This document shows, in pieces, positions 2,399 to 51,600 of a stretch of 64,000 nt of DNA. The stretch covers positions 17,659,501 through 17,723,500 of the forward strand of contig OX485805.1 of the NCBI GenBank assembly GCA_950295325.1, in the 5' to 3' direction. A model generated the notes under the pieces. It ran no database searches. It was not told the DNA's origin and worked only from the letters and a program-made list of their open reading frames with translations. The translations under genes and the position numbers were made by a program. Every line of letters begins with the position of its first letter. The stretch's first letter is position 1. This DNA comes from Polytrichum commune (Eukaryota; Streptophyta; Polytrichopsida; Polytrichales; Polytrichaceae).

Positions 2399-3198
2399 CT
2401 GAAAGAAAAATTTGGTGACTGAAATTGAGATCGATTTCATGTAGGTCGTAGTTTAATCACCAACATCCTTTAACGGCATAACGGCCAGTGAAGAAGTTAC
2501 TGAAAAGTACAGCCTCAGATATGCACCCAGGGTTACATCAACTCATAAAGGCAATCTTCTAAGCACTTCCAATCCCATCATTGCAAGACCTCATTGAATT
2601 TGGAATGAATGATCATGAAAATCCAGGAACAGTCTAAATGGTCAATGTCAACATGACAACTCAATGTTGAGACACACTTATCAGTAACAAAAGTGAAGAT
2701 GCTGAACAGCTGAACTGAAACGCCAGTTATTCTTCAAGATGCCCAGAATAAGAAAGCACCTTGTCTTTGAACAAATCAGAAACGATGTTCAACAAGCACA
2801 ATAAAAGCGATAATTCTAAACCCACCACTTCCGGTAAGTGCACCAAAGTCGTGCCTTTCATTAAGGTGCACAAATTAAGGAGAACATTCCAGCGAACCTA
2901 CACCAGAAGAATGCACAGCTCAGAGAAGTTTGTAAATTGTAGTCAGGTGATGAAAGAATATAAATCAACCTACTCATTGGAGAAATTTTAGCATCGACTT
3001 GAAATCAAACATGAAAGCTTGCAATTTTAGCATCAACTTGTCCAGTCCGTAGGTAAGGGAAACTATACTTCTTGGATCGGACTAGGTCTTATAGAAAAAG
3101 CTTCACTGAAGAATGCTTCGTTTAAAAACAACACGTACTAAATTGCATATGCATAGTCCATTTCTAAAGTCAGAGGGGCCAGGTTGGATGATGCACAC

Positions 3199-3790
3199 CT
3201 TTGTGTCACTCTCTTTATCAAGGAATTTAAGCAAAACAATGCATGTCCTCTTAGGCAACACAAGCCCGATATCAGCAACCATTTTGATAACAACTCCCTT
3301 CCATTGGTCATATCCACCAGTATCCCCTCTCTTTTTCGACCATAGCCCCAAAGCAGACTTTCCCTCTCCATTTTCATTTGAATCCAAAAACTCGTCCAAA
3401 TCAACATCCATCAGTTTTGGGCCCCCATCCCGTTCCTGGGTTGAAGTTACAGGACTGCCAAGTTCTTCTCGAACTGAGATAGCTACATCTGAAGCAATAG
3501 TCAGGGAACTTGAAAGAAGATCCAAGAACTTGGTCATAATGGGCACATTGATTGTGGGAGCACTCAACTCGTTAGCGACACCTCCACTAGCCACTAGAAC
3601 AGCGCGACCAGGTGATGATAGGAAATTTGACAGACTAGATATCATTGCCGGTGTAAAATTTTCAAGGAAAAGCTTCAAAGAAGCAGAAAGTCCACCGCTT
3701 GAAAGAGGCTCAATTGGTTGCATTTGATTTTGGCACCTTTCGAGCAGTGACAGACAGAGCTCCAGTATGTTGGCTAGTCCTAACCATACT
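3199..3790 (-). CDS. ATM: Probable ATM exon 21, upstream border unclear
   Basis: A long open minus-strand segment ends at a GT donor after ESDTK (3199). It contains SLSNFLSSPGRAVLV, an acidic KLMDVDLDEFLDSNENGEG stretch and IGLVLPKRT. In the same frame the opening extends upstream to about 3790 (LANILELCLSLLERCQNQ). Just upstream a different frame reads sensibly and is phase-compatible with exon 20 (SSTWNCDKDAITSLM, then GDKDFLIGALRVEYG), then meets TAG. So either a very short intron (about 55 nt, GTTAGG to CGAAAG) or a one-base shift separates the two. I treat this as continuation of ATM because no promoter or terminator-like sequence is visible, but I do not recognise the segment itself. 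Confidence 0.55.
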
Positions 3791-4157
3791 CGACCCTTAG
3801 TGCACCAATCAGGAAGTCCTTGTCCCCTGTATTCAGTGACTTCAGAATCATTAGGCTAGTAATAGCATCTTTGTCACAATTCCAAGTTGAGCTTCAACAC
3901 AGATCACTAGAAATTTTTGTTGCTTAAGGGAAGAATTGAAAAAGGCATGAAAGTGTGACATTCTTTACGAACTCCAATAATCTAGATGAAGATTCTACGA
4001 TACTGTAGGGTGCTTACCAAGGCTACTTTCCAGACAAGAGAATACAACACATGCAATTGCTCCATGGCTTCTTCATACCTACTTCTAAACTAGATAAAGT
4101 TTGATGAGCAACAATCATGTGAATACAAATGTTGGTGACAACTGTGTCATGCCGAAC

Positions 4158-33709: not shown

Positions 33710-34878
33710 GAATAGCACCAACAACTATAAGTAAGTTACTATAAGTTGTGGGTTCGAAGGTCTCCACCTCTGAGTGCCGAGTGGATGGTGCAAGCTACCG
33801 TGTTAATTTCATTGAATTAACGTAGAGGAACATTTCATCATAATATAAGCAACTTTATTAGCATGTGGGAATAAATCGTAACTTCCATTCATATATATAA
33901 CATGTACAATTTGCACTTCCGTCAGCACACAAGCGAATCTAACATGATATATAATCTACATGTAGGGGAAAAAAAACATGATAGGATGGAGACGATATTT
34001 TTGTTATTTATTTGTGAATTTCCTCTTGAACATCTAATACAAAGGGTCGACCGGATGGGCGACCTCTCATAATATTGTAGCTTCGGATTGGTACATGCGT
34101 ATTAGTTGTTTCTGCTTCTTATCAGCTAGTTACTTTCGTATAGTGGTGTAAACAACGTCCATATGGAAATGTTGTACAAATGGAACGTATAGTCTAACGT
34201 CACCCCTCATATTGAGAGGTGGGGACTGGCGTGTTGACGTAGTGGCTTGTGTGGTGATATCGGTTGGCCTACGTACACTCGCCTATTGTCCATGACATGA
34301 ATTATGCAATATATTGGATATAACTCTCAATTCTCATTACATTGCATAATTCATGTCATGGATAATAGACGAGTGTACGTAGGCCAAACGATATCACCAC
34401 ACAAGCAACTACGTCAACACGCCAGTCCTCACCTCTCAATATGAGGGACGACGCTAGACTATACGTTCCATTTGCACAACATTTCCATATGGACGTTATT
34501 TACACCATTACACGAAAGTAACTAGCTGATAAGAAACAGAAACAATTAATACGCATGTACCAATCCGAACCTTTCCGAAGCTACAATATTATGGGAGGCT
34601 GTCCATCCGGCGAACCCTTTGTATTGGATGCTCAAGAAGAAATCCACAAATAAATAACAAAAATATCGTCTCCATCCTATCATGTTTTTTTTCCCCTACA
34701 TGTAGATTATATATCATGTTAGATTCATTTGTGTGCTGACGGAAATGCAGATTATGCATGTTATATATATGAATGGAAGTTGCAATTTATTCCTACACTC
34801 TAATAAAGTTGCTCATGTTATGATAAAATGTTCCTATACGTTAAGTCAACGAAATTAGCATAGTAACTTGTACCATCC
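33710..34878. mobile_element. Foldback element, left part (split by the gypsy insertion)
   Basis: Arms at about 33710-34310 and 34341-34878 are inverted copies, roughly 90% alike, around a 30-bp spacer. The right arm stops at 34878 and resumes at 44851, where about 85 bp (to near 44935) complement 33710-33790. The pre-insertion element was therefore about 1.25 kb. No ORF and no clear target duplication at its outer ends. A transcript would fold into a near-perfect hairpin of about 600 bp. Confidence 0.85.
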
Positions 34879-34986
34879 TGTCGTGTAAACTAAGATCGTT
34901 AAACATAACAGATCGAGTGTCGTTGTCAACATCAATTAGCAAAATAAAATAGCAAACTAAAATGCTAAACAACCACTTCTTCAAGA
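34879..34986. repeat. 108-bp direct repeat outside the 3' LTR body
   Basis: Near-identical to 35423-35528 (TGTCGTGTAAACTAAGATCG to AAACAACCAC). It directly abuts the target duplication, so it behaves as the true outer end of the 3' LTR in this copy, yet no counterpart follows the 5' LTR body at 44415. Confidence 0.85.
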
Positions 34987-35420
34987 TGAGGGTTTCTCTC
35001 TCCAAGCTCAAGAAACTAAAATGTCTCATTACAAAGCTTAAGAAACTCTAAAATTCACACACAAGAGTCAAGCTATCTCTCACTCCACGAAGGGAGAATC
35101 CAAGAGTGCAAGTGGTGGAGAAAGAATGCAAAGGCTTTACTCATAATCTACTACACCATAGCCATGAGAAAGCAACAACAAGCTCTCTCTCTCTCTCAAA
35201 AACACACTCACAAGACTTGACTTGACAACAATGGCAAGTCAAGAGGCCTTCCTCTCCATACAACCCCAATCCTATGTGGAGTTCAACCATGGAGTGGATG
35301 AACAACTAACTAGGACTCCCAATGGAGTCCGTTATTCATCCCAACACACATGGACTCCTAATGGAGTCCATTTACTCCTAAATTGACGTAACTTAGCCCC
35401 CGATGTCACCTCACGTGACA
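34987..35420 (-). repeat. 3' LTR body of the gypsy element
   Basis: 434 bp matching 44416-44850 with about eight differences (roughly 98% identity). In element orientation it starts TGTCACGTGAGGTGACATCG. It carries a CT-rich run and two GGACTCCNAATGGAGTCC dyads (35313-35330 and 35352-35369) in what should be U3. Confidence 0.92.
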
Positions 35421-35422
35421 GC

Positions 35423-35528
35423 TGTCGTGTAAACTAAGATCGTTAAACACACAGATCGAGTGTCGTTGTCAACATCAATTAGCAAAATAAAATAGCAAAC
35501 TAAAATGCTAAACAACCACCTTTTCAAG
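35423..35528. repeat. Inner copy of the 108-bp repeat
   Basis: Second copy, separated from the LTR body by two bases (GC). Together with the outer copy it brackets the 3' LTR body. The junction resembles two LTR ends joined head to tail, as in 2-LTR circles or tandem copies. Confidence 0.85.
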
Positions 35529-35852
35529 TGCCCCCACTAGCAGATAAAGAGCCCTTCCAATCGGCTAGGAACAAACACACTCATCGGTAGAGTTGTTGAA
35601 CATGATGAAGTTGTTGCTACATCTTTACATATTTAATTGGGTAGTAGTAATCGAAGGAATTAAACTCGTGATTGACAAAGTAATCCAAGAACTATAGGCT
35701 GGGTGCAATGTGAGCCCCATCCTTAATCGCCTTCAACAATTAATGTTGAATTCTTGGATAACTCTTTCAATGTGGTCTTAATTCCATAAAATTTCCAACC
35801 AACTAAATAACAATTTCACCACTAAAATATGTGGTAAACATCCACAAAATTC

Positions 35853-36950
35853 TCAATCATGACCATTAACGGCCACGGAATGAGAGGCTTTCCGACAACG
35901 AGGACAAACCCAATTGCCAGAAGGAAGAGTCAAAAGGGGAGGTGTCAAACATGCCATGTGCCATCCACGTTGACATTGGTCGCACAATAACATTGTTGCA
36001 GCTCCTTTCTTCTCTCCACAAACATAACAAGGCAGACCCTGTGGTACAACCGCCAACTCGGGATGCACAGAGCCGTCGATGGGAAGGTGACATGGAGCAC
36101 AATTCTTTGAATGCTCACGACATTCCCGTCCATCCTTGCCTTCAAGCAATAATATACCACTTGGCAAGACATTTTTTACCCGCAAAATCGTGCGCCCAGC
36201 CTTGACATCCAATGTCGTAGGCGCCTCCCGTTGTAAATAAACATAATCCCCCTTGGAAAATCTACGAACCTGAGGTCGATAAGCTCCACTGCGGATCCGG
36301 GCATACCGTAATGTATCACGATGTTGAGCAATATTTAAGTTCTCCATAGCCATAGGCATGGCCTTTGGGAAGAACGTTGCTCGGTCATGAAGACATTGAG
36401 CCCAAACATCTGGATCATCCAAGTTTACCACGGGAGCCAATTTCTCTCGCACCGAGTTAGGTAAAATTGGTTCCCGTCCATACAAGAGTTGGTAAGGACT
36501 ATAGGATGCCAAAGATGCTTGCCTGCTGAAACGATAACCCATTGCTATCCATGGTAACATCAAGTCCCAATCGCGATGGTTGTCATGAAGCAATCCATAC
36601 TTCCGCAAACCGCACTTAACCGTATGAACAACTCGTTCAGCTAAGCCATCTGCCTCAGGGTGATCTCTGGAAGTTGTCTGATGATCAATCAAAGCCTTGG
36701 TACACAAAGCCTCGAAAGATCCAAGGAATTCTCTCCCTTGATCTGTCAACACTTCTGCAGGTGCTCCAAACCGTGCCAAAACTCGATCAAGAAATGCCAT
36801 AGCCGCCAATTCTGAGGAATTTTGGGGAAGAGCCACGAGTTCAATCCACTTACTAAAATGCTCCACCATCACAAACACATAGTTGGAACCACGTGGAGTG
36901 ATAGTAAGCGGTCCGGCAAAATCCAAAGACCAACGATATCCCAAGCCCAA
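35853..36950 (-). CDS. Integrase core with C-terminal PHD finger
   Basis: 365 codons, shifted relative to the upstream frame by the 17-bp duplication. The rve core begins SLDFAGPLTITPRG (Asp), then EVLTDQGREF (Asp) and DHPEADGLAERVVHT (Glu), a complete D,D-35-E triad, followed by the usual SPYQLLYGREPILP. After a basic linker (YRPQVRRFSKGDYVYLQ), residues 308-352 form a PHD finger: C308-X2-C311, C323-X2-C326, H331-X2-C334, C349-X2-C352 (CYVCGEKK, LLCDQCQRGWHMAC, WVCPRC). PHD fingers commonly read histone H3 tails. Here it occupies the place that a chromodomain holds in chromoviruses, which suggests a role in choosing integration sites. Confidence 0.92.
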   Translation of the reverse strand: MGLGYRWSLDFAGPLTITPRGSNYVFVMVEHFSKWIELVALPQNSSELAAMAFLDRVLARFGAPAEVLTDQGREFLGSFEALCTKALIDHQTTSRDHPEADGLAERVVHTVKCGLRKYGLLHDNHRDWDLMLPWIAMGYRFSRQASLASYSPYQLLYGREPILPNSVREKLAPVVNLDDPDVWAQCLHDRATFFPKAMPMAMENLNIAQHRDTLRYARIRSGAYRPQVRRFSKGDYVYLQREAPTTLDVKAGRTILRVKNVLPSGILLLEGKDGRECREHSKNCAPCHLPIDGSVHPELAVVPQGLPCYVCGEKKGAATMLLCDQCQRGWHMACLTPPLLTLPSGNWVCPRCRKASHSVAVNGHD

Positions 36951-36964
36951 CGATATCCCAAGCC
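36931..36964. repeat. 17-bp tandem duplication causing the integrase frameshift
   Basis: CAACGATATCCCAAGCC occurs twice in a row. Both copies encode MGLGYRW-like text on the minus strand, and 17 is not a multiple of three, so the duplication alone explains the frame change. Confidence 0.95.
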
Positions 36965-37336
36965 CATAATAGGTAAAGGCTGAAGTTGAGGTGACAAAAT
37001 ATTAAAACTTGACCTGACCCGGTCACATACTTCACACCGATAAACATAAGTGGCAACCTGTTGATACATACCAGTCCACCAATATTGGTTGCGCAACATA
37101 GAGTGCGTCCTTCGCACTCCAAAATGTCCAAGCTCCTCGTGCACTTGCCGTACCAAAGAAGCTCTTTGACCTGGCCTTGGAACGATGCGCCTCGTTCCGT
37201 TCAGCTACACACAAAATAACAAGTTGTTTGCCCAACGAAACCTTGTTATCCGGTGACTAACTCTATCTCGCTCCATAGCAGATAATCCAAGAGGAAATAT
37301 CCCGTGTTGAAGTTTGTGCAAGACCGCCTGGTCTTC
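36951..37336 (-). pseudogene. Integrase zinc-binding part, frame 1
   Basis: Still in the original frame: VRQVHEELGHFGVRRTHSML, then YRCEVCDRVR, the H2C2 zinc module (H-X4-H and C-X2-C) of gypsy integrase. The frame is lost at the 17-bp tandem duplication at 36931-36964. Confidence 0.85.
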
Positions 37337-37927
37337 CTACACATCACTAACAACGAAAGATTTATCAACCTCCTCATCATGTTCTTCTACAAGGATCTCA
37401 GCAGCCAATCCCGACATCATTGTGAGATATGTGGCAGCATGCCAACCCGGCACTGCCTCACGATCACAATCTCCATGCCACCTGGCTCCAGTTAAATCCT
37501 CATCTGAAGGACTTGGATTGCGAGACAATCCGTCTGCATCCAAGTTGGCAATTCCTGCTCGGTGAACAACTTCAAAATCATATTCCTGAAGTAACAATAC
37601 CCACCTACCAAGTTTCCCGGTGAGCTTATCTGATTCCATAAGCTATTTTAAAGGCTGATGATCAGTCACCAAAGTAAACTTTTGCCCATACAAATAAGGT
37701 CGAAAATGTGCAATGGCCCAAACGGCCGCCAAGGCCTCGCCTTCATAAGAAGAATAATTAGATTCAGCACTATTATTGCTTCTAGATGCATAAGCCACCA
37801 CATATTCCTTTCCTTCTTCATCTTTCTGTGTCAATACCGCTCCCAATCCCACTGCACTCCAATCCGTGTGCAATTGAAAAGCTCTAGACACATCCGGGCG
37901 TCGAAGCACTGGCGCTGAACCGAGCCT
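37337..37927 (-). pseudogene. RNase H domain and connection, broken by stops
   Basis: Same frame. FQLHTDWSAVGLGAVLTQ, YEGEALAAVWAIAHFRPYLYG and LVTDHQPLK are gypsy RNase H, with the catalytic acidic residues present. A TAG at 37643-37645 falls where relatives read tryptophan (PLKWLM). Afterwards comes GRWVLLLQEYDFEVVHRAG and NLDADGLSR, the typical end of the domain. A further TAG lies at 37337-37339. Confidence 0.85.
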
Positions 37928-39013
37928 CTACTTCAATGTATCAAATGCCTGTTGTTGTTCCCGACTCCAAATCCAAGATTGGTCTTTCCCCGTGAGAATG
38001 GTAAGAGGTTTGGCAATCAAACTAAAGTTTTTGACAAACCTCCTATAATAATTTGCCAATCCTAGAAATGCACGAAACCGTGGTACATCACTAGGTGCGG
38101 GAATTTTGTGCAAAGCATCCACCTTCGCCTGTTGCACATCAAGACCGCGATGAACAATCATGTGGCCTAAATAGGGCAATTGATCATGGAAAAACTTACA
38201 TTTTCCATGATGTAAACGGAGTCCCCACCGTTGAAGTCGTTCAAATACTGCTTGCAAATGTCTCACATGATCCTGTGGACTATTACTAAAGATGATAACA
38301 TCATCAATGTAACATCTAGCAAACGGCAAACCAGCCAATAATTGGTCCATCACCCGCTGAAATTCAGCTGGTGCATTCTTGAGACCAAATGGCAGAAATT
38401 TCCAATGATAAAGTTGATCCTTGCCATCTTTATCAATTCCCCAAAATGCGGTTTTCACCCGATCACCCAACAACAAAGGTAATTGATGATAACCAGACCT
38501 CAAATCCAAAGTGCTGAAGATTCTAGAAAATCCCAGTGCATCAAACAACTCCTCCGGCATCGGCATTGGATATCGATATGACTTGGTCTTGCGGTTGACT
38601 GGACGATAATCACCACACATCCGTTTTTCCGTCCAGTTGCCAAAGATATCATTCTTTGACGGCATAACCGTGGCACAAGCATACTCTCCATTGGAGAGTT
38701 CAATCAATTCCGCTGCCAATAACTCTTGACATCGAGTTTGAACACCCAACCTTTCAGAGGTACTAAGTCTGTACGGCCGTCTGAAAATAGGGTGGTCGTC
38801 CTCGAGTTGAATACGAACAGGTTTACCTTTATATCCTTCAAAATCATGAAGACTAAAGGCAAAACAATTACGGTAAGAGCGAATAAATGCCCGTACCTTT
38901 CGTGCTTCGGCACCAGTAAGCTTTGGCCCCACTTCAATTGGCCAATCGTCAAACTCCGTGGTTTCTTTCTTCATAGAAGGATTGCCAATTGGTGCCAGCA
39001 CAGCCTGTGATTG
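37928..39013 (-). CDS. Reverse transcriptase domain
   Basis: Same frame as the upstream ORF (43111 and 39001 differ by a multiple of three). Sequence shows KRMCGDYRPVNRKT, FSTLDLRSGYHQL, FLPFGLKNAPAEFQRVMD and the catalytic RCYIDDVIIFS (YxDD box), then FLGLANYYRRFVKNFS. These are the standard Ty3/gypsy RT blocks in order. No ATG opens it, so it would come from the long polyprotein or by readthrough of TAG 39014. It ends at TAG 37928-37930, just before RNase H. Confidence 0.95.
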   Translation of the reverse strand, partial: QSQAVLAPIGNPSMKKETTEFDDWPIEVGPKLTGAEARKVRAFIRSYRNCFAFSLHDFEGYKGKPVRIQLEDDHPIFRRPYRLSTSERLGVQTRCQELLAAELIELSNGEYACATVMPSKNDIFGNWTEKRMCGDYRPVNRKTKSYRYPMPMPEELFDALGFSRIFSTLDLRSGYHQLPLLLGDRVKTAFWGIDKDGKDQLYHWKFLPFGLKNAPAEFQRVMDQLLAGLPFARCYIDDVIIFSNSPQDHVRHLQAVFERLQRWGLRLHHGKCKFFHDQLPYLGHMIVHRGLDVQQAKVDALHKIPAPSDVPRFRAFLGLANYYRRFVKNFSLIAKPLTILTGKDQSWIWSREQQQAFDTLK

Positions 39014-39520
39014 CTAGTCCGTGGAGAGGGCAACACTTTTGCCCCCATCATCTGCACTTGAATCCAAATGCGTATCCTCTCCACTACAATCAGTTTGTGT
39101 AGCTAAATAGCTACCCACATATGAAGTATCACCAAGAAATAGAAGTGGAAACATTTTATGGGCCTCCAACTTCCCAAACTCTTGGGCCAAAGCCGAAAAA
39201 ATACGTTGGGCTCGAAGCTCTTCCGCAACATGAAGTTTCAAAGGAAATAATCCCTCGGTGTCATTGACCTCAATGTGATCCTTGGATTGCGGCTCCATTG
39301 CCCCCTGACCATTATTTTCTGCCCTCAGAGTAAGCAATTGGTCATCCATACGTTGTTGAGCAGTAAGACAAATTCCAATTATCCACACAATGCTATTAAG
39401 ATCCATAGCTTGCCCCAATAGGAAACGTCTCTGACCTTCCTGAAGCCCGTGAGCAGCCGTGGTACCTGTAAGAAAACCCATGGCGCGTTCCCGCTCATCT
39501 GCCGTAGGCTCCTCATAAGT
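39014..39520 (-). pseudogene. Methyltransferase C-terminus and linker, same frame
   Basis: In frame with the preceding ORF, between TAA (39521-39523) and TAG (39014-39016). ERERAMGFLTG and QRRFLLGQAMDLNSIVWI correspond in position and character to motifs IX-X of DNMT3-like enzymes (ER-FGFP, RxRLLGxSWSVPVI). So the first stop cuts the methyltransferase itself, between motif VIII and motifs IX-X. The remaining linker (to ALSTD) is not recognised. Confidence 0.75.
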
Positions 39521-42500
39521 TTAGGATTTGGAATCCCAAACCATGCTAGGTCCACGAGATCGAAATGCAAAAGACTGTGGATATGTCACAAAAGTAGGTA
39601 GTGCACCTCTCGGAATTCCCACCTTGTTAATTAATGCAAATGACACGGTGTCATCCTTGGTAACCGCCAAGGAAACACGATGATCATTTAAAATGTCATC
39701 CACCTTGCGATCCATAAGGCGGGGAATGCGGGCAATCGCCGCCGAAAGCACCCGAGGTGATACCAAGTTGGTCCAAAACCAACGAGGCCGATGAGCAAAG
39801 GATCCCAAAGATGCAACATCCAAAAATGTTGGAGTACCCAGAATTTGGTTAATGTACTCACCATCCTTCACCACTTTGTGCCGGGTATCACCCAATAATG
39901 GTACATTTTTGAAAATGTACCTTGGCGGAGTTGATTGGTGGGTAAACCACCATTGCGTCAATCGCATCAAATCCGCAAACAAACTAGACCTAGGATCATC
40001 CAATCCCTGGCCAGTTCCTGCCCGCGAATGGCCTTGACAAGGCCATCCTGCAATAATCAAATCCACGTGGCCCAACCTTCTCAAATCCTCATCACTAATC
40101 ATAGTGACATCTTGAGGAAGTTGACCACAACATTCATGAATGGCAGAGGCTGACAATTGTGCGGGGTATATCAACAACAATTGTTGGATGTGGTGTCGGA
40201 CGGCTCTGTTAGCTGCATACCCATTGTCCACATGAATATATCGCCAAACTGTAATTCCAGCTTCCAACACTGCCGCCAAACCTGTGCCAATGCCTCCAAA
40301 GACCTCCACAAGGACAATACCTTCAGGTGATGGTTGCCAACGAATGGGTTGAGCAAAAGAAAATGAGGATGAAGTTGGGGGTGCCTCTCCAAGCTCCAAA
40401 TCCGCTACAATGTGTCGACAATGGTCGGATAACTCCTTAGGAGTTCGCCATGGTGGAGGTGGATCCTTGAAATGTCGAGCAGGAATTTGAAAAGATGGTA
40501 AAAATTGTTGTTCTGCCGCATTACAAGTGTAGTCCATTGTTTCCTCCAATAAAACTGGAGCACAAGGCAAATCTGCAACTAAACCGCTGCAACCAAACAT
40601 TGCCTCCGCAACCATAGTCATAGCAGTGGCTGCAAATGTGACGGGAATAAATACCTTCCTGCCATCTCCAGTGGACCATCCCGGTCTAATCCATGCCTCT
40701 TCCGTCCAATTATCCAAACCAAAGCCAAGTGGGTAAAGAGCTTGCTGACCAACAAGTATATCATAGTTGGTAGCATTAGTAACAACACACTTCATTGACA
40801 AATGAGTGTAAGTAGGCCCTGCCCCCACATGAAAAATCAAACGTAGAGGTGCCTTGGTGTAACCTGTTGCACGTTCAGTGCCCCCTACTGAAGTCACAAT
40901 AGTGAATGGACAAGGATCCAAGCTTGCTGGCGTCAATCCAAGACTGTCAGCAAGTCCTTTGCCAATCATAACCGGTTGAGCACCGGAATCCATCATAACT
41001 CTCAGTGGTGTAGCACGGATAGTAGGCATATCCGTACGTGAAACGACAAACAAAGATTTGTCGTTTATCAGCCGTACAACTCCTGGTTGCAAATTATGCC
41101 GTTCGCGAGCAGGCCTTGCAGAAATGTCTGCAAGATATGCCGCTCCGGACGCATAATTCGCAAACGACGTATCCACTGCTGAAATTGATGCTGGAGGAAT
41201 ATCAGTTTGCTTACCAAAAGCAATGATCGCCGCATCCGCAAGACTCGCTCGCAAATTGGCTAAGTCCTCCACCTCCTCAGCCACAGGTACGTCAACCACA
41301 GCTTGGGATACTTGAAGGGATGGCAAATCCGCCTTACCTTCTAACATTCTCCCAGCTAAATGAAAAACTGCAGCAGGCTTGAAATCCGAAGCCATAAACT
41401 CCGAACCCGAGAAAATTGGCATATGGAGAATTTTATATGCCAATGCCTGCGTAACATCCTTCGAGATGGAATCCCCATCTCTCAAAAGTACAGGGTTTTT
41501 AGCCCCAACAACAGTGGTGTCTACCAATCCAAATGAAAGAGGTAAATGTGCTTGACCAATTTGATCAGCTGGTCCGGCATGGCGAGGATGTAGCACCTCG
41601 TTGCTACCACCACTCGTGGAAGCCACCGCATCTGCCAATGTTTGTGAGCGAGTAGAAGCCGCCGCCACCACCTCTCCAGCTGCTCCAAACATATACATGT
41701 CCGAACCCGAGGTGCCACCACCCACATGCGGCTCAGAAATTTGAGCAAAAGATGCAGAAGATTTGAGCTTTTGCTCAAGCTCTGCCACCTTAGCCTCAAG
41801 ACTCTGCTCCCTTGGAGACTTTCCAGTGACATAACTGGCAGGCCGCATCTCAGGATGAAGTAGGAAACAATGATCCACATCGTGATTAGTGCCACCACAA
41901 TGGCTACATTTCAATTGTCTCTTCTTAGAATTGTCCCATGCCCTTACTGGTTCCATCTTTTGTTTTAATTTTCCCAAAGGCTGAGTTTTCTTCTTCTTAG
42001 GACAATTGGGATCATTCTTCGAATGACCAGCTTCTCCACAACCCCAACAATGCAAAATCTTTTGCTCCTTGACGGGTTGAGTCTCAGCTAAACTACTAGT
42101 AGCTGTGACAATTCTTCTTGGTTTCGGACTCTCTGTCATCCAAGATACCATATCTGTGGCATCATGTTGGCAAAGAGCCCGATCACATTTCTCAACCACG
42201 GCAAACGCTTGTGCAAGCGTAGCTCGGCCCTCGTAGTCGAGGATAATCCGAGGTGATGCCAACTCAAGTAGCCGCTTGTCAATCTTAGACAAAAAGATTT
42301 TAACAAGCTGACTCTCAGCAAAAACACCTCCCGACTCCACAGCAAATCGCGCGAGTCGCGTATACATGGTCCGTGGAGTATCATCCTTCTCTCGGCGGAA
42401 ATCCTGGATGCGCTGCATCTGGTCTCGCCGAAACCCACCATATTCCACTTCCAAATGTGCGACAAATTCAGTAAGGGGGTTAAACGGAGGTGGTGGACCA

Positions 42501-43111
42501 ACAGCCGTCAATGTTGCCTGTGTAGCACGTGCCACCCGTGAAAGGGTTGCCGTGCTACTGCTAGCCACCATTGGCCCAAGTGCCAGTTCCGTGTCCTTAG
42601 ACTCCGCCGGCGATTCCTCCTCCTTTAAGGTGGGTGGAGCTAAGGTAGCAACCGCCCCATCCTTAAGGGCTGAAATGAACTCAACTCGAGCCTCCCAATA
42701 CTGCTCCACCTCCCGAAGTTGTCGTTGATGACCCTCTGTCCAGCGTTCATAAGTTTGGAGTGCCTCATACTCCAAATGTTGAGGCAGAAGTTCAAAGGCA
42801 TACCAATCATTGAAATTGGAAGACCTTTGGCGTTTCTCCTTAATCCAGGTACGAAACCGGAGTTTCCAATCGGGCAAGGAAATGCCCCCAGCTCGACCTG
42901 AAAACCGATCACGCAATGAATTGTGGCGATCGTCCTCCATGTCGTCGAACGTGCCGACACTCCAAATCCGAAGCCTATTAGTAGTGTCCAACGCCGAAAT
43001 AGGCTCAAAAGCCTCGTTGGTATCTACCTCTGACTCAAGATTTGTGGTATGCACGTCCTCCAAGTAATCTGGTGATGGAGATCGATAATATCGGCTCCTA
43101 GTTTGCACCAT
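39521..43111 (-). CDS. Gag, protease and C5 DNA methyltransferase polyprotein part
   Basis: 1,196 codons from ATG 43111 to TAA 39521-39523. Residues about 50-310 are capsid-like (DWKLRFRTWI). Two zinc knuckles: 355-370 (CWGCGEAGH, C-X2-C-X4-H-X6-C, widened) and 402-415 (CSHCGGTNHDVDHC, canonical). A coiled stretch lies near 436-450. The retropepsin has DSG at 708-710 and ILVG at 785-788. From about 930 a C5-cytosine methyltransferase follows: motif I VEVFGGIGTG (935-944), motif II around HVDNGYAANR, motif IV GWPCQGHSRAG with the PCQ cysteine at 1025, then LDDPRSSLF, motif VI as KNV (1068-1070, normally ENV) and motif VIII AHRPRWFWTNL. Binding pattern and PCQ look intact; the lost glutamate should abolish catalysis. 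The frame continues after the stop. Confidence 0.93.
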   Translation of the reverse strand: MVQTRSRYYRSPSPDYLEDVHTTNLESEVDTNEAFEPISALDTTNRLRIWSVGTFDDMEDDRHNSLRDRFSGRAGGISLPDWKLRFRTWIKEKRQRSSNFNDWYAFELLPQHLEYEALQTYERWTEGHQRQLREVEQYWEARVEFISALKDGAVATLAPPTLKEEESPAESKDTELALGPMVASSSTATLSRVARATQATLTAVGPPPPFNPLTEFVAHLEVEYGGFRRDQMQRIQDFRREKDDTPRTMYTRLARFAVESGGVFAESQLVKIFLSKIDKRLLELASPRIILDYEGRATLAQAFAVVEKCDRALCQHDATDMVSWMTESPKPRRIVTATSSLAETQPVKEQKILHCWGCGEAGHSKNDPNCPKKKKTQPLGKLKQKMEPVRAWDNSKKRQLKCSHCGGTNHDVDHCFLLHPEMRPASYVTGKSPREQSLEAKVAELEQKLKSSASFAQISEPHVGGGTSGSDMYMFGAAGEVVAAASTRSQTLADAVASTSGGSNEVLHPRHAGPADQIGQAHLPLSFGLVDTTVVGAKNPVLLRDGDSISKDVTQALAYKILHMPIFSGSEFMASDFKPAAVFHLAGRMLEGKADLPSLQVSQAVVDVPVAEEVEDLANLRASLADAAIIAFGKQTDIPPASISAVDTSFANYASGAAYLADISARPARERHNLQPGVVRLINDKSLFVVSRTDMPTIRATPLRVMMDSGAQPVMIGKGLADSLGLTPASLDPCPFTIVTSVGGTERATGYTKAPLRLIFHVGAGPTYTHLSMKCVVTNATNYDILVGQQALYPLGFGLDNWTEEAWIRPGWSTGDGRKVFIPVTFAATAMTMVAEAMFGCSGLVADLPCAPVLLEETMDYTCNAAEQQFLPSFQIPARHFKDPPPPWRTPKELSDHCRHIVADLELGEAPPTSSSFSFAQPIRWQPSPEGIVLVEVFGGIGTGLAAVLEAGITVWRYIHVDNGYAANRAVRHHIQQLLLIYPAQLSASAIHECCGQLPQDVTMISDEDLRRLGHVDLIIAGWPCQGHSRAGTGQGLDDPRSSLFADLMRLTQWWFTHQSTPPRYIFKNVPLLGDTRHKVVKDGEYINQILGTPTFLDVASLGSFAHRPRWFWTNLVSPRVLSAAIARIPRLMDRKVDDILNDHRVSLAVTKDDTVSFALINKVGIPRGALPTFVTYPQSFAFRSRGPSMVWDSKS

Positions 43112-43265
43112 AAAATAATCACTTGAGTACCTGCAACTATCTACAAGGTAATGGCAACCTGCACCTGTTGCGGGCTATCTAAATGGCAATCCCTTGCCAA
43201 ATGCCAAGTGTTTATGCCCCCAGAATTCCAAAATTGTGCAAAGGTTGGAGATTGGTAATTAAAAT

Positions 43266-43700
43266 GAAAAATCAGCGTTGAAAAGGCTCATTTCCAAGGT
43301 GATTATGAACTCCAATCAACAAACTAAGTGCACCAATGGACTCCTAGGAAGATTTCACACAAATTAGGCTCAAATTTCACTCCAATCGGAGTTAATTTGC
43401 TCCCAAAAACAAAAATCAGCGTTGAAATTAGCAATTTCAGCAATGATTTTGACTTCCAATCAAAAATCCAATTACACCATTGGATTCCTTGGCAAATTTC
43501 ACACAAATTAGGCTCAAATTTCACTCCAATCGGAGTTAATTTGCTCCCAAAAACAAAAATCAGCGTTGAAATTAGCAATTTCAGCAATGATTTCGACTTC
43601 CAATCAAAAATCCAATTACACCATTGGATTCCTTGGCAAATTTCACACAAAATAGGCTCAAATTTCACTTCAATCGGAGCTAGTATGCCCCCAAATTTGA
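43266..43700. repeat. 144-bp tandem repeats in the gypsy leader
   Basis: About 2.6 clear copies with period 144 bp (starting near 43329, 43475 and 43619) plus a worn partial copy before them. The core is TCACTCCAATCGGAGTTAAT within CAAAAATCAGCGTTGAAATT. It lies between the LTR and the Gag start. The period is a multiple of three, so both strands stay open by chance across it. Confidence 0.9.
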
Positions 43701-43869
43701 GCCTCAAAGTTTGTGACAATGAAATGCCAAATTTGAAAGTGAAAGTAAAAATTAAAAATTAAAAAAAAATAAAATCCGGTTTATTTAAAAATTTTAAAAA
43801 TAATTAACTTAATCTAATTAACTTAATTAACTTAAACTAATGAAAAAAAAAAAAAAAAAATAAAAAAGT

Positions 43870-44100
43870 GGCCTTACCTGCAAGGTAAGGTGCCCCTGTA
43901 AAGGGGGGAGCCAGCCTGGGCTTGGCCGAGCCCGCCCGCCCGTGGGGCCCGGCCGGCGCCCGCCCGCCTAGCTGGCCTGGGGGCCCGGCTTGCGCTTGCC
44001 CGGCCCCGGCCCGGTTTGCGCCGCCCGTTAGAGTTCAGAACCGGAGCTCCAAGAGGGTCCGGTGAGCTCCGGATCCGTCCGGAGCTCCACCAAAATTAAA
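43870..44100. other. GC-rich island in the gypsy leader
   Basis: About 230 bp of strongly GC-rich sequence (GCCCGCCCGCCCGTGGGGCC and similar) with many CpG sites, in a surround of A/T. It includes a palindromic GGAGCTCCGGA / TCCGGAGCTCC pair. It sits after a long A-run (43843-43860). It is likely to be strongly folded in the RNA; role unknown. Confidence 0.8.
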
Positions 44101-44415
44101 ACTAAATCGGATTTTGAATTTGGTTTATGTTTGTATTTAAATTAAACTTTGCTTAACAATTTGCAAGCAAGAAAATGTGACTTGAGAATCTCGAAACTAA
44201 ATGGAATCTCAAGATTCAAACATCAACAATTGAAGAAAATACAAGAGACAACAAAAGAAAAATGGGAAGATTTCTCTCAAAATCTTCTTGAGGATTGCAA
44301 GAAATGATGAACTAAGCTTTCAAACACTTGTATCACTCATTTGCTCTCATTACTGGGCCATTCTGGCTCAGAAATACAACCAAAAATGAAAAATTTGAAC
44401 AATTGTTGTCAAGTA

Positions 44416-44850
44416 TGAGGGTTTCTCTCTCCAAGCTCAAGAAACTAAAATGTCTCCTTACAAAGCTTAAGAAACTCTAAATTCACACACAAGAGTCAAG
44501 CTATCTCTCACTCCACGAAGGGAGAATCCAAAAGTGCAAGTGGTGGAGAAAGAATGCAAAGGCTTTACTCATAATCTACTACACCATAGCCATGAGAAAG
44601 CAACAACAAGTTCTCTCTCTCTCTCTCAAAAACACACTCACAAGACTTGACTTGACAACAATGGCAAGTCAAGAGGCCTTCCTCTCCATACAACCCCAAT
44701 CCTATGTGGAGTTCATCCATGGAGTGGATGAACAACTAACTAGGACTCCCAATGGAGTCCGTTACTCATCCCAACACACATGGACTCCTAATGGAGTCCA
44801 TTTACTCCTAAATTGACGTAACTTAGCCCCCGATATCACCTCACGTGACA
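44416..44850 (-). repeat. 5' LTR body of the gypsy element
   Basis: 435 bp, partner of the 3' copy. In element orientation it starts TGTCACGTGAGG beside the ATCC duplication and ends at ACCCTCA. The same two dyads are at 44743-44760 and 44782-44799. A small plus-strand ORF across it (44592-44816) is antisense to the element and probably meaningless. Confidence 0.92.
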
Positions 44851-44935
44851 ATCCACTTGGCATTCGGAGGTGGAGACCTTCGAACCCACAACTCATAGTA
44901 ACTTACTTATAATTGTTGGTGTTATTTGAAGTTTC
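44851..44935. mobile_element. Foldback element, displaced end of right arm
   Basis: Complement of 33710-33790 (GGTGGAGACCTTCGAACCCA here against its reverse complement there), separated from the rest of the arm by the 9.97-kb retrotransposon. It begins with the second copy of the target duplication ATCC. Confidence 0.85.
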
Positions 44936-46640: not shown

Positions 46641-48616
46641 TCAGGCGTGGGGCCCGCCAAATAATACTTGAAACCCTAACCCTAAGAGATAGGGGCAGCC
46701 CCACCACTCGCGTGGAACGAAGGCAGGTCACGGATGCCCAGGGCACAAGGAAGAGGGCATCTTTCGTGGGAATCTGTGCAGCTTCCATCGCCGATTCGCC
46801 ATGCCTCCGCTCCAGGCACAGGTCCCGTTGCCCGCGGATGCTCTTCCCGCCTCGTTGCTAGGGGAATAGCGCCTCGCTGGCTCGAATTTGGTGGTTTTTG
46901 GAGCAAGATCGGAGCTCCTGGGGTTAAGTTACCGAACAACGTCATGTATGCATTGATGTCGGTGGTGTTGTTGCGGGAATGACGTGTTGTCAGCAGCAGC
47001 AGCGTCAGACCTCCGAGGCGGGCAGGCGTGTCGGTGGTCATCGTAGAGTAAATCGACAGCAATCTCGTCGCGGAGGATTCAGAGTCGAAGCGGGGTTATG
47101 AGTTTGAGGAAACATTATCGCAATTTCTGGATGGGGATCACTAGGAGGTGGTTGTTGTCGTTGGCTGAGCTTGCCGGTGCCATCTGGTGCAGAGGCAGTT
47201 AGACTTGGTGAGGATTGGGAATTCCTGGGGGAATTGCAAAGAAAAGTGTCCCAAGGATGATGTCTCCAGGATGACACAGCATGGCAAGGTGATTCTGGTC
47301 CATGTTGGGGGCAGCAATCACATCACGGCAGAAATATTATATTTGATCTGTCTAACGCAACTGGAGTTAGCTTTATTCACATAGAGAGTGTAGATCCAGC
47401 TTGGGTTGTGTACTCTTGCCTTGCAATCTTCGAGGATTTCAATGGTGTTTCACGAATTTGGCCAATCACTGCTAATTATGGTTTAGTCCTGAAGCTCAAC
47501 GGGCTTTGCTGGCTCTTTGGGCCACGACGAGGGGCTATAGGCTGAATTTGCAGAGTGTGGATCGAGCTTTTGTCAAGGAACTCATGATTTTATTCAGAAA
47601 CATCAAGCAAGCTGTTATTTAACATGAGGGTGTGGACCAGGATTCTGAAAAGCCATCAGAATTTGGAACCTCACGGGATTGATGTATGTCTGCCTTTTCT
47701 AAAATCATTGAGCAAGATTCACTTGTTTTTTGACACCACGATCCTCGAAGCTTGAATCTCGAAACTCACAAACTGTGTTTGAATCGCACAAAATTTCTGC
47801 TTGAATCCGAGTGGGAGACAATCCTTCGGTAAATGTAGGAAACAATTGGTCTTTAATGGTTACGAAGTGCTGAGTGTCAGACAAGTGGGAGACATGCAGA
47901 GCTCAACTGTATCTGAAACGAGAACGAACAGTACCAGCTTAGTAATGCTATATTGCTGAGGTAGATTGGAAAGGATTCGGTCTGTGACTTCTAGTTTATT
48001 ACTGATAAGGGAGGTGACTTGGAAGTGAATCACAGTTCTTCTGGTGCATCCTGATTCTTAACGTTCAAGCCCATGTCCTGAGTGTATAATTAGAATATAA
48101 ACCAGAAAGTTTTTGAGAGCTTTGTTCTATTATATGTCTGGCAAATTCTAAATATGATATCATATACAATATATCATTCGTTCCGCAGTGTTTGTGTGCA
48201 TTTCCTGATTGATTGGTATCTTTTTGTGTGCAGGAGTTGCAAATACATTATGGAAGGGGAGCTCACACTCAATATGCTTCAAAGTTCTATTTGCATGCAG
48301 TGACCGAGGCTCTTCAATTTCTGCAGGGTCATTCTGTACAGGTTGGGAGAACGTGGTTATATTTTTTATTTTTTGAAATGTCGTTTTTCCCCCCTGAACT
48401 TGGATTTCTTACGTATCCACATGGAAGAAAGAAGAAATGGAGAGGTTGATGGTCTTTGTAAGTTGTATAGGACCTCTGTGACCCACTAGAACAATCCCGA
48501 TCAAAGGAAATTGAAAGTAGTTGTAATGTACAAATGAGGTTTTATTCAAGCATTCTTTGACTTGGACCTTGTATACGACAAAGTAATCAAACTGGTGACC
48601 TGCTGGATGTGTGCAG
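46641..48616 (+). promoter_or_regulatory. Probable URT1 promoter and 5' untranslated region
   Basis: GC content rises at about 46640-47250, as at a plant transcription start. An upstream ORF of 22 codons (MPPLQAQVPLPADALPASLL) starts at 46801. The acceptor GTGTGCAG just before 48617 implies a leader intron. I could not locate its donor. Confidence 0.4.
48234..48341 (+). other. Orphan exon-like segment
   Basis: 108 bp bounded by TGTGTGCAG and a GT donor, open for 36 codons (ELQIHYGRGAHTQYASKFYL, then HAVTEALQFLQ). It joins neither the URT1 frame nor another visible exon. It may be a leader exon, an alternative first exon, or a relic of another gene. Confidence 0.35.
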
Positions 48617-48626
48617 ACCATCATCC

Positions 48627-51600
48627 ATGAACCCCTCCCCGTCATACCATCCCCCACCCTCATTGGTGGGCACGTCCTCTTTCACCCCTTCCCCTCCACT
48701 TTCACAATCCAATCTGGGAGTGATTGGGGAGCCCTCTGCCCGCCACCATGGAATTGAACCAAACGGAGAGTTCCTTCTACAGCTCCTGCAGGGTGGGGGA
48801 AGAGTTGGGCAGCACAATTCAACTGGTGACCGAGTGGGTGAATGGCCATCTAGTTTGGAAGAGCTCCCCCTCTCGCTTGGAGTTGAAGATTTTTCCACTT
48901 GGCAGATTCGAGATCCAGCAGTAGCTGCCCTGGGACCCAGCCATCCATTCCATGCAGTGGAGGCACCTAATCAGCTCTTGCAGCCAAACCCGTTGTTCAT
49001 GCCACCACAATATGCAAGTTTGCAGGGCGGTGGAGCATGGTCTTCACAGCAGCAGCAGCATCAGTTCTTCCCGCCGTCCATTGATCATCGTGACTTTGGA
49101 GGATTGCATCCAAGAGGTTCTCATCAGGTTGGGTCGAGTCAGTTCCCAGCATATCCACTTGCACAATCCCTGGAACAGGCAACACATAGAGTTGATAATC
49201 CTATCTTGGATTTCTCCAGGCGACCTGATGCACCCTGGCTCCCTCCTCCTCATGTACGACAAGGAATTAATGATAGTCCCCCAAATGCACATACTTGGGG
49301 TGGCTCGATGCAGGGGAATGTTTTAAAAACGCCCCTACCTCCCCCTCTTCCACCTCTACCAACTCCTCCTCCGCAGCAATTCTTTGGGGATGGCAAAGAG
49401 TTATTGCAGCTTTTGTTAGGTGGAGGCTCTCAAAACTTGGGATCTCACAAGCTCCAGAAATCATCTGTGAAGAATGCACAGGGTGTGGTTATTGATGCAG
49501 GTTCTGCAGAAGATATTATAGGGGAAGGGCTTACAGGGGGTGCCCAAGTTGTGTTACCTAGGACACAAGTACATGGTCCAATTGGGCCCCCCAAACGTGT
49601 TGAGGCCTCTCAGCCGGAACAATATCCTGCAGGAGCCGAGTATCTACTTGGTAAGCTCTGGGCAGCTCCTAATGCTACAGCAAATGGGTACCCTGAATCC
49701 AGCAGAATCTTAAAACCTGGTCTTACACTTGGGCAGGAAGACTGTTCACGTGATATTTCTCATGGCGGAATACACATGAAGGAGAGCTTGACGTCATTAT
49801 TTGAGGCTTCAGAAGTACAGCAGCAGAGAACATATGATTTTTTTGCAGAGCAGTCAAAACCTATTGTGAAAAAACCACCAGGATTTACCACTGATCAGGA
49901 CCGATTAAGTGGCCTCCCTCTCGAGTCAACTATTTTCTCTTCCCCTGTCAAGGTGTTGCCACAGAAAGGAGATGTTTTGGGAGGGAGGGATGGAGCAATA
50001 TTGAGCACTTGGGATGGTTTTCAGGAAAGACCAAGTGACATAAAACCAGAGCATCAACTTAGGCCTACTGATGACAAAGGTGAACCTCTGCAGCTTGGTA
50101 GATAGCCTGTATCTGGAGGTCCGGCTTCAGTCTAGATTGGTAATGGGCAGTGAAGTCCCTCTGTTCTCATTGAGTTAGGCAAGGACACCATTGTTGCAAA
50201 CAAGATATATCTTCCAATATGTAACATAGGATTGTGTGAGTATATTTTCAAGATATTTGCTTGATTTGTCACCAGAAAGAGTTCAGCTTGGGGATGGTTA
50301 ATGCGGTTCATATGTGGATGTTTGAAATTTTCAAAAAAATCTAGCCCATATTCTTTTATTGTTGTATTGCAGCATTCCACCAGTTTCAACGACATTCCAC
50401 CAGTCTCAATGGCCCAGCGAGAAATAGAGAGGAAAGTTATCAGGCTATGTCTATCACCACAGGTTCAGTTAAGGATAATATGGCCACCACAGACTTTTCT
50501 GGTGCTTCAAAAGAAAATGAGACCGGTATTTCACGAGAATATGCTCGAATGGGGGGTAGAGGGAGTGGTCGGCGTGGTGCTTCTGGGAGAGGGGAAATTG
50601 GTCGTTCTGGAGGCCGAATGGTTACTGGACAGTGGGTAGCTGTGCAAGATGTGCAAAGAGAGCGGGACAATGCAAGAGATGTCATCACCACCCGAAGTCT
50701 TCTAGATACTGTAGATGTCTCAGCAGATCAAGGTGCCTCATACCTAATGAAGGTGAATTCCACTGGTTCTATCTCAACTACACTGGCAGGCAAATCACCT
50801 CCCCCAAGGAAGGAGGATTCACCAACATCCTTGAAGGATGCTGGGAGTGGAGGAAAATCAAAAGAAGATAGCAAACGTCGAAGAGGGCAAACGCAAGAGT
50901 GGAGGATGAAGCAACCCTCGCCTCCTCAGAGCAAGTCCTCAGAAACACTGGCTACACTAGATTCTCCTTCTCAGCAACACATGCACTCTGCAGGAATTCT
51001 TCCTCTTGCTTCACAGGTACATGAACATCATTTGCACATTATCAGGTAGCTGCGTATTTATGTGATTACACTCTTTGGCACACGTGTCTGTCCTTGCAAT
51101 TTCATCATTGGCATATGCGGTTCTTATTTTGACATTTTTGAGATAAGTCCACTGATGATCCTAGAACCAAAGTTCTCCACTCAAGCATTTCAATGAATGG
51201 ATACTTGAAGGAAATCATTACACATTGAAACTGAAGAGGTCTTTTTAGACATCTTTAAGGGCAAGAGTTTGATGAACTTGAGCACCTGATGTCAATGCTG
51301 AATTTTCTCTTTGGGTGGTATTGGGTTAGTGTTTGGTATGCAGATTATGCTCAAAACCTAGGATGGGATGGGTAGAATGTAGTGGGTAATTTAGCCGAGA
51401 GCTGCACATTTGTATCTTGCAAGTTGTAACTTTCCAAATTTTGTCAACATTTGTAAATCATCTTGTCAAAATGTTTTGGTTTAGGGTTCTCCATGGGAGC
51501 CTAAAATATGATGTTCAATGTGCAGGTAGATCATCCTGGTTTACCTTCCAATATGGTGCAACACTCAGTGCCAGGTTCTGCCATGGATGAATCAAAGCAG

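What the first reader, a model, noticed from the sequence alone, without database searches (positions are those of the whole stretch)
39364..40324. Retrotransposon-borne C5 DNA methyltransferase between protease and RT
A full set of C5-methyltransferase landmarks (motif I GGIGTG, PCQ, LDDPRSSLF, motif VIII AHRPRWFWTNL, and a motif IX-X-like tail) lies in frame inside the gypsy polyprotein, after retropepsin and before RT. It cannot be a neighbouring host gene, since it has no intron, no own start, and lies between the LTRs. Retroelement-encoded methyltransferases have been described in dinoflagellates and charophyte algae, as I recall, but they are rare. Motifs IV and VI-VIII mix bacterial Dcm-like and DNMT3-like traits. 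A plausible role is methylation of the element's own DNA, either to persist quietly or to tolerate host methylation.
Basis: partly seen in the sequence, partly recalled or inferred. Interest (0 to 1): 0.95.

Follow-up and report, generated by a model that had tools for sequence, protein, structure and literature searches.

The report
Methyltransferase-carrying gypsy retrotransposon family in plants
This is one broken copy of a large, recently active plant jumping-gene family that carries its own DNA-methylating enzyme; with relatives in liverworts, mosses and green algae, it shows a known but rare kind of element to be widespread in the green lineage.

Summary
A DNMT3-type cytosine-5 methyltransferase lies between protease and reverse transcriptase of a Ty3/gypsy element on the minus strand (34879-44850). 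Two corrections: this copy is dead (motif VI Glu is Lys; a TAA precedes motifs IX-X), and the domain belongs to ORF1 (gag-PR-DNMT), which ends in UAG-CAA-YYA, the TMV-type leaky stop, before ORF2 (RT-RH-IN-PHD finger). That stop context is kept in 21 of 21 copies examined. The own genome holds at least 206 matching places. Of 113 listed RT copies, 99 have the domain just upstream; 5 of the other 14 were opened and carry it too, one truncated. Between two subfamilies the domain is under purifying selection (dN/dS about 0.12), but recent copies are laxer. Repeats are split (A-coding-B-A-B; 4-bp target duplications in 17 of 18 copies), and the primer site pairs with a stretch of the repeat, co-varying between subfamilies. 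Relatives occur in Marchantia, Calypogeia, Sphagnum, Closterium and, partially, Volvox. Closest known: KnitGypsy-Dnmt3 of Klebsormidium (PMC5890265). Likely function, inferred: methylating the element's own cDNA. A new variant of a known kind.

The parts
34879..44850 (-). whole element, A1 - coding - B1 - A2 - B2, termini TGTC...GACA
   Evidence: repeats; same arrangement in 17 of 21 copies
44851..44854 (.). target-site duplication GGAT (the other copy at 34875-34878)
   Evidence: 4-bp duplications in 17 of 18 copies with both ends placed
44409..44850 (-). repeat A1 (5' side)
   Evidence: 98% identical to A2
44650..44662 (-). putative self-primer ATTGTTGTCAAGT inside A
   Evidence: reverse complement of the primer-binding stretch, 13 of 13; co-varies in subfamily S
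44402..44414 (-). putative primer-binding site ACTTGACAACAAT at the A1/internal border
43261..43692 (-). three 144-bp tandem repeats in the 5' leader
39014..43111 (-). ORF1: gag, two zinc knuckles, retropepsin-like protease, DNMT, tail; ends in TAG
   Evidence: relative P0001 ends in the same STD residues
40640..41080 (-). retropepsin-like protease
   Evidence: weak Pfam matches PF13650 and PF13975, both below their cut-offs; MMDSGAQ motif in window and P0001
39371..40324 (-). DNMT3-type cytosine-5 methyltransferase domain, inactivated in this copy
39908..39910 (-). Lys codon in place of the catalytic Glu of motif VI
39521..39523 (-). premature TAA inside the DNMT, only in this copy of 25
39008..39016 (-). 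leaky-stop context TAG CAA TCA between ORF1 and ORF2
   Evidence: 21 of 21 copies fit TAG CAR YYA
35853..39013 (-). ORF2: RT, RNase H, integrase, PHD finger; broken here by stops and a frame shift
   Evidence: relative P0148 aligns along it at 60-65% identity in two pieces
35890..36040 (-). C4HC3 PHD finger behind the integrase
   Evidence: PF00628 3e-11; spacing pattern checked
35531..35538 (-). putative polypurine tract AGTGGGGG before B1
   Evidence: GGGGGCA in both subfamilies
35422..35528 (-). repeat B1
   Evidence: 96% identical to B2
34981..35420 (-). repeat A2
34879..34985 (-). repeat B2 (shares CTTGA with the end of A2)

Best explanation
Shown: this is a decayed copy of a multi-copy Ty3/gypsy retrotransposon family whose first ORF codes for Gag, protease and a DNMT3-type cytosine-5 methyltransferase, and whose second ORF (RT, RNase H, integrase, PHD finger) follows a TMV-type stop context. 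Inferred: ribosomes mostly stop at the UAG, so Gag-PR-DNMT is made in excess and occasional readthrough gives Gag-PR-DNMT-Pol; protease frees the DNMT inside the particle, next to the nascent cDNA. Reverse transcription starts from a self-primer made of the transcript's own repeat. The DNMT methylates the new cDNA, probably at CG sites, before integration. The PHD finger steers the integrase to chromatin. The new copy thus arrives methylated, which host maintenance enzymes can keep; this either hides it as 'self' DNA or limits damage to the host, and so favours long persistence.
Against: No activity, expression or methylome data for this family. The K. nitens gypsy DNMT showed no activity in yeast, which its authors call inconclusive. 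Recent W copies show weak constraint on the DNMT: dN/dS 0.67 over all W pairs (RT 0.21, IN 0.24; PHD 1.28), and pN/pS 0.60 among ten young copies against 0.15-0.31 for RT, IN, gag and PR, with 0.90 for the short PHD, so it may be dispensable in the short run. C-to-T decay occurs in all contexts (CG 12 of 80 sites, CHG 8 of 81, CHH 57 of 418), which fits host methylation at least as well as CG-only self-methylation. dS between W and S is saturated, so 0.12 is rough (47 of 60 pairs usable for the DNMT). At least one relative in the sister clade (P0228) has no DNMT match between RNase H and integrase. Readthrough, transcript start and self-priming are inferred from sequence.
Confidence: 0.55

Rival explanations
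1. The DNMT acts in trans on the host: it raises or disturbs methylation at rival elements or silencing genes, as a counter-defence, rather than on its own cDNA.
For: High copy number (at least 206 places) and expression at Gag level would give much enzyme; a chromatin reader (PHD) sits in the same element.
Against: The PHD is on ORF2 behind the integrase, not on the DNMT; no targeting domain such as PWWP or ADD was matched in ORF1; in K. nitens the methylome stayed land-plant-like despite such elements (PMC5890265, section read).
Confidence: 0.15
2. The DNMT part is kept for a non-catalytic job, such as nucleic-acid binding or as a spacer of the Gag precursor.
For: Catalytic Glu lost in 3 of 25 copies; DNMT laxer than RT among recent copies; one long relative (P0203) gave no DNMT match with the profile used.
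Against: By simple patterns, EN of motif VI is present in 36 of 38 and CQ of motif IV in 37 of 38 DNMT rows from widely separated elements; dN/dS 0.12 between subfamilies.
Confidence: 0.15
3. Recent one-off capture of this plant's own DNMT gene by one element, without function.
For: The domain is of host DNMT3 type.
Against: Same domain before RT in Marchantia and Closterium proteins and in metagenome relatives, and behind PR in a Calypogeia protein; W and S subfamilies are about 63% identical with saturated dS; DNMT and RT trees show corresponding groups.
Confidence: 0.02
4. On the split repeats: the replicated linear DNA (repeat unit B+A at both ends by primer and polypurine positions) is circularised and then cut by the integrase at the palindromic B|A junction GACA-GC-TGTC, not at the usual repeat ends.
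For: The A2|B2 border equals the expected end-to-end junction; termini TGTC...GACA with 4-bp duplications in 17 of 18 copies; copy L019/L020 is A-coding-B with a duplication, as a one-unit circle would give.
Against: The other cutting product (A-B-A at the 5' side) was seen in none of 17 W rows (not tested for S), although both junctions look alike; L019/L020 can also come from recombination between B1 and B2.
Confidence: 0.35

Closest known systems
KnitGypsy-Dnmt3 of Klebsormidium nitens (PMC5890265)
   Same: Gypsy domain set with a DNMT3-type, unrearranged DNMT; repeats described as arranged like those of DIRS elements although the domains are gypsy; several copies; purifying selection on the DNMT (section 9 read). 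Other K. nitens elements fall in the same RT clade as ours.
   Different: There the DNMT is reported inside the Pol ORF; here it is in the Gag-PR ORF before a UAG-CAA-YYA stop. No K. nitens DNMT appears among the rows listed, so kinship of the DNMTs themselves is untested. 'PHD' does not occur in that paper's main text, while one K. nitens relative here, P0202, has a PHD finger.
SymbioDIRS-Dnmt3 of Symbiodinium (PMC5890265)
   Same: Retrotransposon-borne DNMT3; the tested domains are active on CG in yeast.
   Different: DIRS elements with tyrosine recombinase; here a DDE integrase and target-site duplications. P0028 (DIRS-like RT by recalled resemblance, DNMT behind it) is a distant tree neighbour only.
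Tf1 of fission yeast (self-priming; recalled)
   Same: Primer-binding site complementary to a stretch of the element's own repeat.
   Different: Transcript start not mapped here; sequence evidence only.
TMV-type leaky stop UAG-CAR-YYA (recalled)
   Same: Consensus met at the ORF1 stop in 21 of 21 copies.
   Different: Used here between Gag-PR-DNMT and Pol; readthrough not measured.

Membership tests
Ty3/gypsy LTR retrotransposon | gag, PR, RT, RNase H, DDE integrase in this order | tested here: met
Ty3/gypsy LTR retrotransposon | two equal direct LTRs bounding the element | tested here: not met
   A at the 5' side, B-A-B at the 3' side in 17 of 21 copies; target-site duplications are nevertheless present. 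I therefore call it a gypsy-type element with split repeats
DNMT3 | unrearranged motif order and closer to DNMT3 than to DRM, bacterial or DNMT2 enzymes | tested here: met
   profile E-values 3.8e-25 (DNMT3A), 1.9e-7 (DRM2), 3.7e-8 (M.HaeIII), 4.3e-6 (tRNA C38 enzyme); fold match
DNMT3 | methyltransferase activity | not testable with these tools
   window copy lacks the catalytic Glu; 22 of 25 copies keep it
KnitGypsy-Dnmt3 | DIRS-like repeat arrangement with gypsy domains | tested here: met
   compared with the legend read
KnitGypsy-Dnmt3 | DNMT in the Pol polyprotein ORF | tested here: not met
   DNMT and RT are separated by a conserved TAG
KnitGypsy-Dnmt3 | DNMT sequence kinship | tested here: inconclusive
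   no K. nitens DNMT among the rows listed; RT clade shared with K. nitens elements
DIRS | tyrosine recombinase, no target-site duplication | tested here: not met
   rve integrase; 4-bp duplications
TMV-type stop readthrough | UAG CAR YYA | tested here: met
   21 of 21 copies
TMV-type stop readthrough | measured readthrough | not testable with these tools
   sequence only
Tf1-like self-priming | transcript 5' end complementary to the primer site | tested here: inconclusive
   13 of 13 pairing in 13 of 17 W rows; L011 and L021 have one change, L019 two, L041 lacks both sites; S: 13 of 13 in L045 and L047, one mismatch in L043, two in L039; shuffles; transcript start unknown

The most novel reading that the evidence does not exclude
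A single old clade of green-lineage gypsy elements, defined by a PHD-tipped integrase and a captured DNMT3, has carried its DNMT since before mosses, liverworts and zygnematophytes parted and perhaps before streptophytes and chlorophytes did. The DNMT sits at two different places in the polyprotein in two sister groups. These elements replicate through self-priming and a circle cut inside the repeat, make the DNMT at Gag level through a leaky stop, and integrate as DNA that is already methylated.
Probability: 0.25. Interest if true: 0.85.

Novelty: new variant of a known kind. Interest (0 to 1): 0.6.

Why it matters
Retrotransposons are the classic targets of DNA methylation, so an element that brings its own DNMT, and keeps it over long evolution, asks what methylation does for the element. 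The gypsy case that I found in print was a charophyte alga. Here land-plant and other green-algal relatives, a Gag-level expression signal and hundreds of matching places in one genome make the question testable in plants. It also warns that DNMT3-like hits in plant and metagenome annotations may be transposon genes.

Tried and rejected
Host gene or neighbouring exon: rejected by repeats on both sides and conserved order in many copies. Domain lacking in sister copies: not found. Of the 14 RT places without a listed DNMT, 5 were opened: 4 hold the full stretch and 1 a truncated one; of the 9 unopened ones, 3 have a DNMT match 4.5-12.5 kb upstream on the same strand. Bacterial Dcm origin: weaker than DNMT3 in each comparison. 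Tree with host DNMT3/DRM/CMT: not possible; the PF00145 search of the own genome was filled mainly by element-like matches, and two matches that start at profile positions 1-2 (C2:4703606, C5:47587802) may be host exons and were not followed. DRM chains are not among the 50 fold rows shown, which excludes nothing. K. nitens DNMT: not among the rows listed in three protein searches. Other copies in the window: none by blastn or tblastx. No tRNA gene in the window. Automated end-finding misplaced the 5' ends of L009 and the S copies; for these I used the repeat-defined ends, where L009 still has no duplication. Rows dropped: in dN/dS the copies with stops or short matches, listed (gag gave no W-S value; IN only 4 pairs); in the RT tree six short or oddly ordered rows. 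A first RT tree set-up caught only 7 rows and was redone. In one search a slicing slip printed long relatives' sequences; from that call only the PHD spacing and the upstream lengths were used. In print: searches gave no paper on DNMT-bearing gypsy elements in bryophytes; I read passages of PMC5890265 (and its section 9 whole), PMC6338049, PMC12344493, PMC6453930, PMC10952607 and PMC5784723, so a report elsewhere is possible. Searches on PHD fingers with LTR elements, a Polytrichum genome, split direct repeats and readthrough gave listings that I did not follow.

Full report
What is there. The element lies on the minus strand between 44850 and 34879. Its termini are TGTC and GACA and it is flanked by GGAT on both sides. 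ORF1 starts with MVQTRSRYY at 43111; the relative P0001 (75% identical in the DNMT stretch) ends in the same STD residues as the window's frame at the TAG of 39014-39016. ORF1 holds a gag-like part without a Pfam match, two zinc knuckles, a retropepsin-like protease (weak, below the Pfam cut-offs) and the methyltransferase. ORF2 holds RT (6.5e-31), RNase H (by alignment to relative P0148), integrase (2.1e-13) and a PHD finger (3e-11). In this copy ORF1 has a premature TAA inside the methyltransferase, motif VI reads KNV instead of ENV, and ORF2 has stops and a frame shift: it is a dead copy.

Copies in the own genome. The genome held is 408 Mb in 64 contigs. A protein search lists 144 places (534 candidates, 144 scored): 129 at 86% identity or more (subfamily W), one at 75%, and 14 at 62-63% (subfamily S). 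A PF00145 search (352 candidates, 123 scored) adds 62 further places, at least two of which may be host genes, so 206 is a lower bound for matches and not an exact count of elements. The 113 RT places scored (of 2114 candidates) were compared by coordinates: 99 have a DNMT match upstream on the same strand, 1.1 to 1.9 kb start to start. Of the other 14, five were opened: four carry the full DNMT stretch and one a truncated one; nine were not opened. So the domain is a regular part of this family. Of the 144 places, 15 list an open frame of 1386 aa without a stop in the match, and at least 19 of 113 RT places one of 1047 aa. A1 and A2 are at least 99.3% identical in 11 of 17 copies (the copies were chosen by DNMT score, which favours young ones). 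The family was recently active.

Leaky stop. In the window and the 20 fetched copies (21 of 21) the ORF1 stop is TAG followed by CAA and YYA: TAGCAATCA in W (TAGCAACCA once), TAGCAATTA in the four S copies, while the residues around it differ between W and S. UAG-CAR-YYA is the tobamovirus readthrough consensus (recalled). This puts the methyltransferase on the abundant side of the stop, with Gag and protease.

Selection. Between W and S, dN/dS is 0.12 for the DNMT (47 usable pairs), 0.12 for PR, 0.035 for RT, 0.03 for IN (4 pairs only) and 0.10 for the PHD, with dS saturated, so these are rough; gag gave no value. Within W the picture is weaker: 0.67 for the DNMT, 0.49 for PR, 0.31 for gag, 0.24 for IN, 0.21 for RT and 1.28 for the PHD. 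Among ten young W copies (8 to 10 per segment) pN/pS is 0.60 for the DNMT, 0.90 for the short PHD, and 0.15, 0.19, 0.29 and 0.31 for RT, IN, gag and PR. The DNMT is thus kept over long times but tolerated in damaged form for short times. Single changes in the DNMT piece of 20 W copies are 77 of 109 C-to-T or G-to-A, at similar rates per site in CG, CHG and CHH, as expected for a heavily methylated element. It does not say who methylates it.

Ends. W copies have one repeat A at the 5' side and B-A-B at the 3' side; with two S copies this was seen in 17 of 21. One copy (L019/L020) is A-coding-B; three were not resolved (those of L035, L039, L045). No B was found on the 5' side of 17 W rows. Four-bp target duplications flank TGTC and GACA in 17 of 18 copies with both ends placed; the exception is L009. 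K. nitens gypsy-Dnmt3 elements are described with the same DIRS-like arrangement (legend read). A purine-rich tract precedes B1. The stretch right after A1 pairs over 13 nt with a stretch inside A in 13 of 17 W rows (L011 and L021 have one change, L019 two, and L041 lacks both sites). In S the pair reads ACTTGGCAAGAAT and ATTCTTGCCAAGT, so two positions have changed on both sides: 13 of 13 in L045 and L047, one mismatch in L043, two in L039 (shuffle test). This suggests self-priming; the transcript start is not known.

Relatives. DNMT searches found named relatives in Marchantia polymorpha, Calypogeia fissa, Sphagnum troendelagicum, Closterium and, by its locus name only, probably Spirogloea, plus many unnamed metagenome proteins. 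An RT search listed 120 of 2103 rows; of the 118 new ones, 33 match the DNMT profile in the same protein: 20 before RT (Closterium and others) and 13 behind RNase H (including a partial Volvox reticuliferus protein); 56 of 118 have the PHD finger. Many of the other 85 begin at RT, so their DNMT state is unknown. On the RT tree the second kind falls in one clade of 15 rows (SH-aLRT 100), 13 of them with the DNMT in that place; P0228 and P0220 gave no match. K. nitens elements fall, with ours, in a clade of 98 rows (100). On the DNMT tree the second kind is again one group (10 rows, 99/99), and the moss, Marchantia and Calypogeia rows share a group of 15 rows (86/95). Without host DNMT3 genes these trees cannot tell one capture from two.

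Function. The inferred role is methylation of the element's own cDNA inside the particle. Support is precedent (SymbioDIRS-Dnmt3 domains methylate CG in yeast; the K. nitens gypsy domain gave an inconclusive negative; passages read), the place on the Gag side of a leaky stop, and long-term constraint. No step of it was measured here.

Verdict. The finding is real and its core reading is right, but the kind is known since 2018. What is new here, as far as searches show, is the extent in land plants and other green algae, the two-ORF layout with a leaky stop, the PHD-tipped integrase, and sequence evidence for unusual ends and priming.

Noticed in passing
P0232, P0237, P0240, P0260: Related gypsy polyproteins carry PF05869 (Dam adenine methyltransferase, name recalled), three of the four also with a PHD finger: another DNA methyltransferase type in such elements.
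   Followed up: no
P0030: A 455-aa protein named 'DNA cytosine methyltransferase' in a Candidatus Obscuribacterales MAG groups with this element family; it looks like plant retrotransposon DNA in a bacterial bin.
   Followed up: partly
P0016-P0027: Marchantia gene models annotated as hypothetical proteins look like pieces of these elements; a Marchantia study lists five DNA methyltransferases (PMC5784723, passage read).
   Followed up: partly
L019 and L020: One copy ends A-coding-B with a 4-bp duplication and lacks A2-B2.
   Followed up: partly
P0203: A 2028-aa relative with RT-RH-IN-PHD and a long N-terminal part but no DNMT match to the profile used; by eye a remnant without PCQ may be present.
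   Followed up: no
window 43261-43692: Three 144-bp tandem repeats in the 5' leader of the element.
   Followed up: no
window 3103-3855 and 48561-51049: Open frames that may be parts of host genes lie at a distance from the element; not identified.
   Followed up: no
G000 C1-C7: Seven large contigs of a 408-Mb genome suggest about seven chromosomes; by recall this fits a moss of the Polytrichum group, not tested.
   Followed up: no
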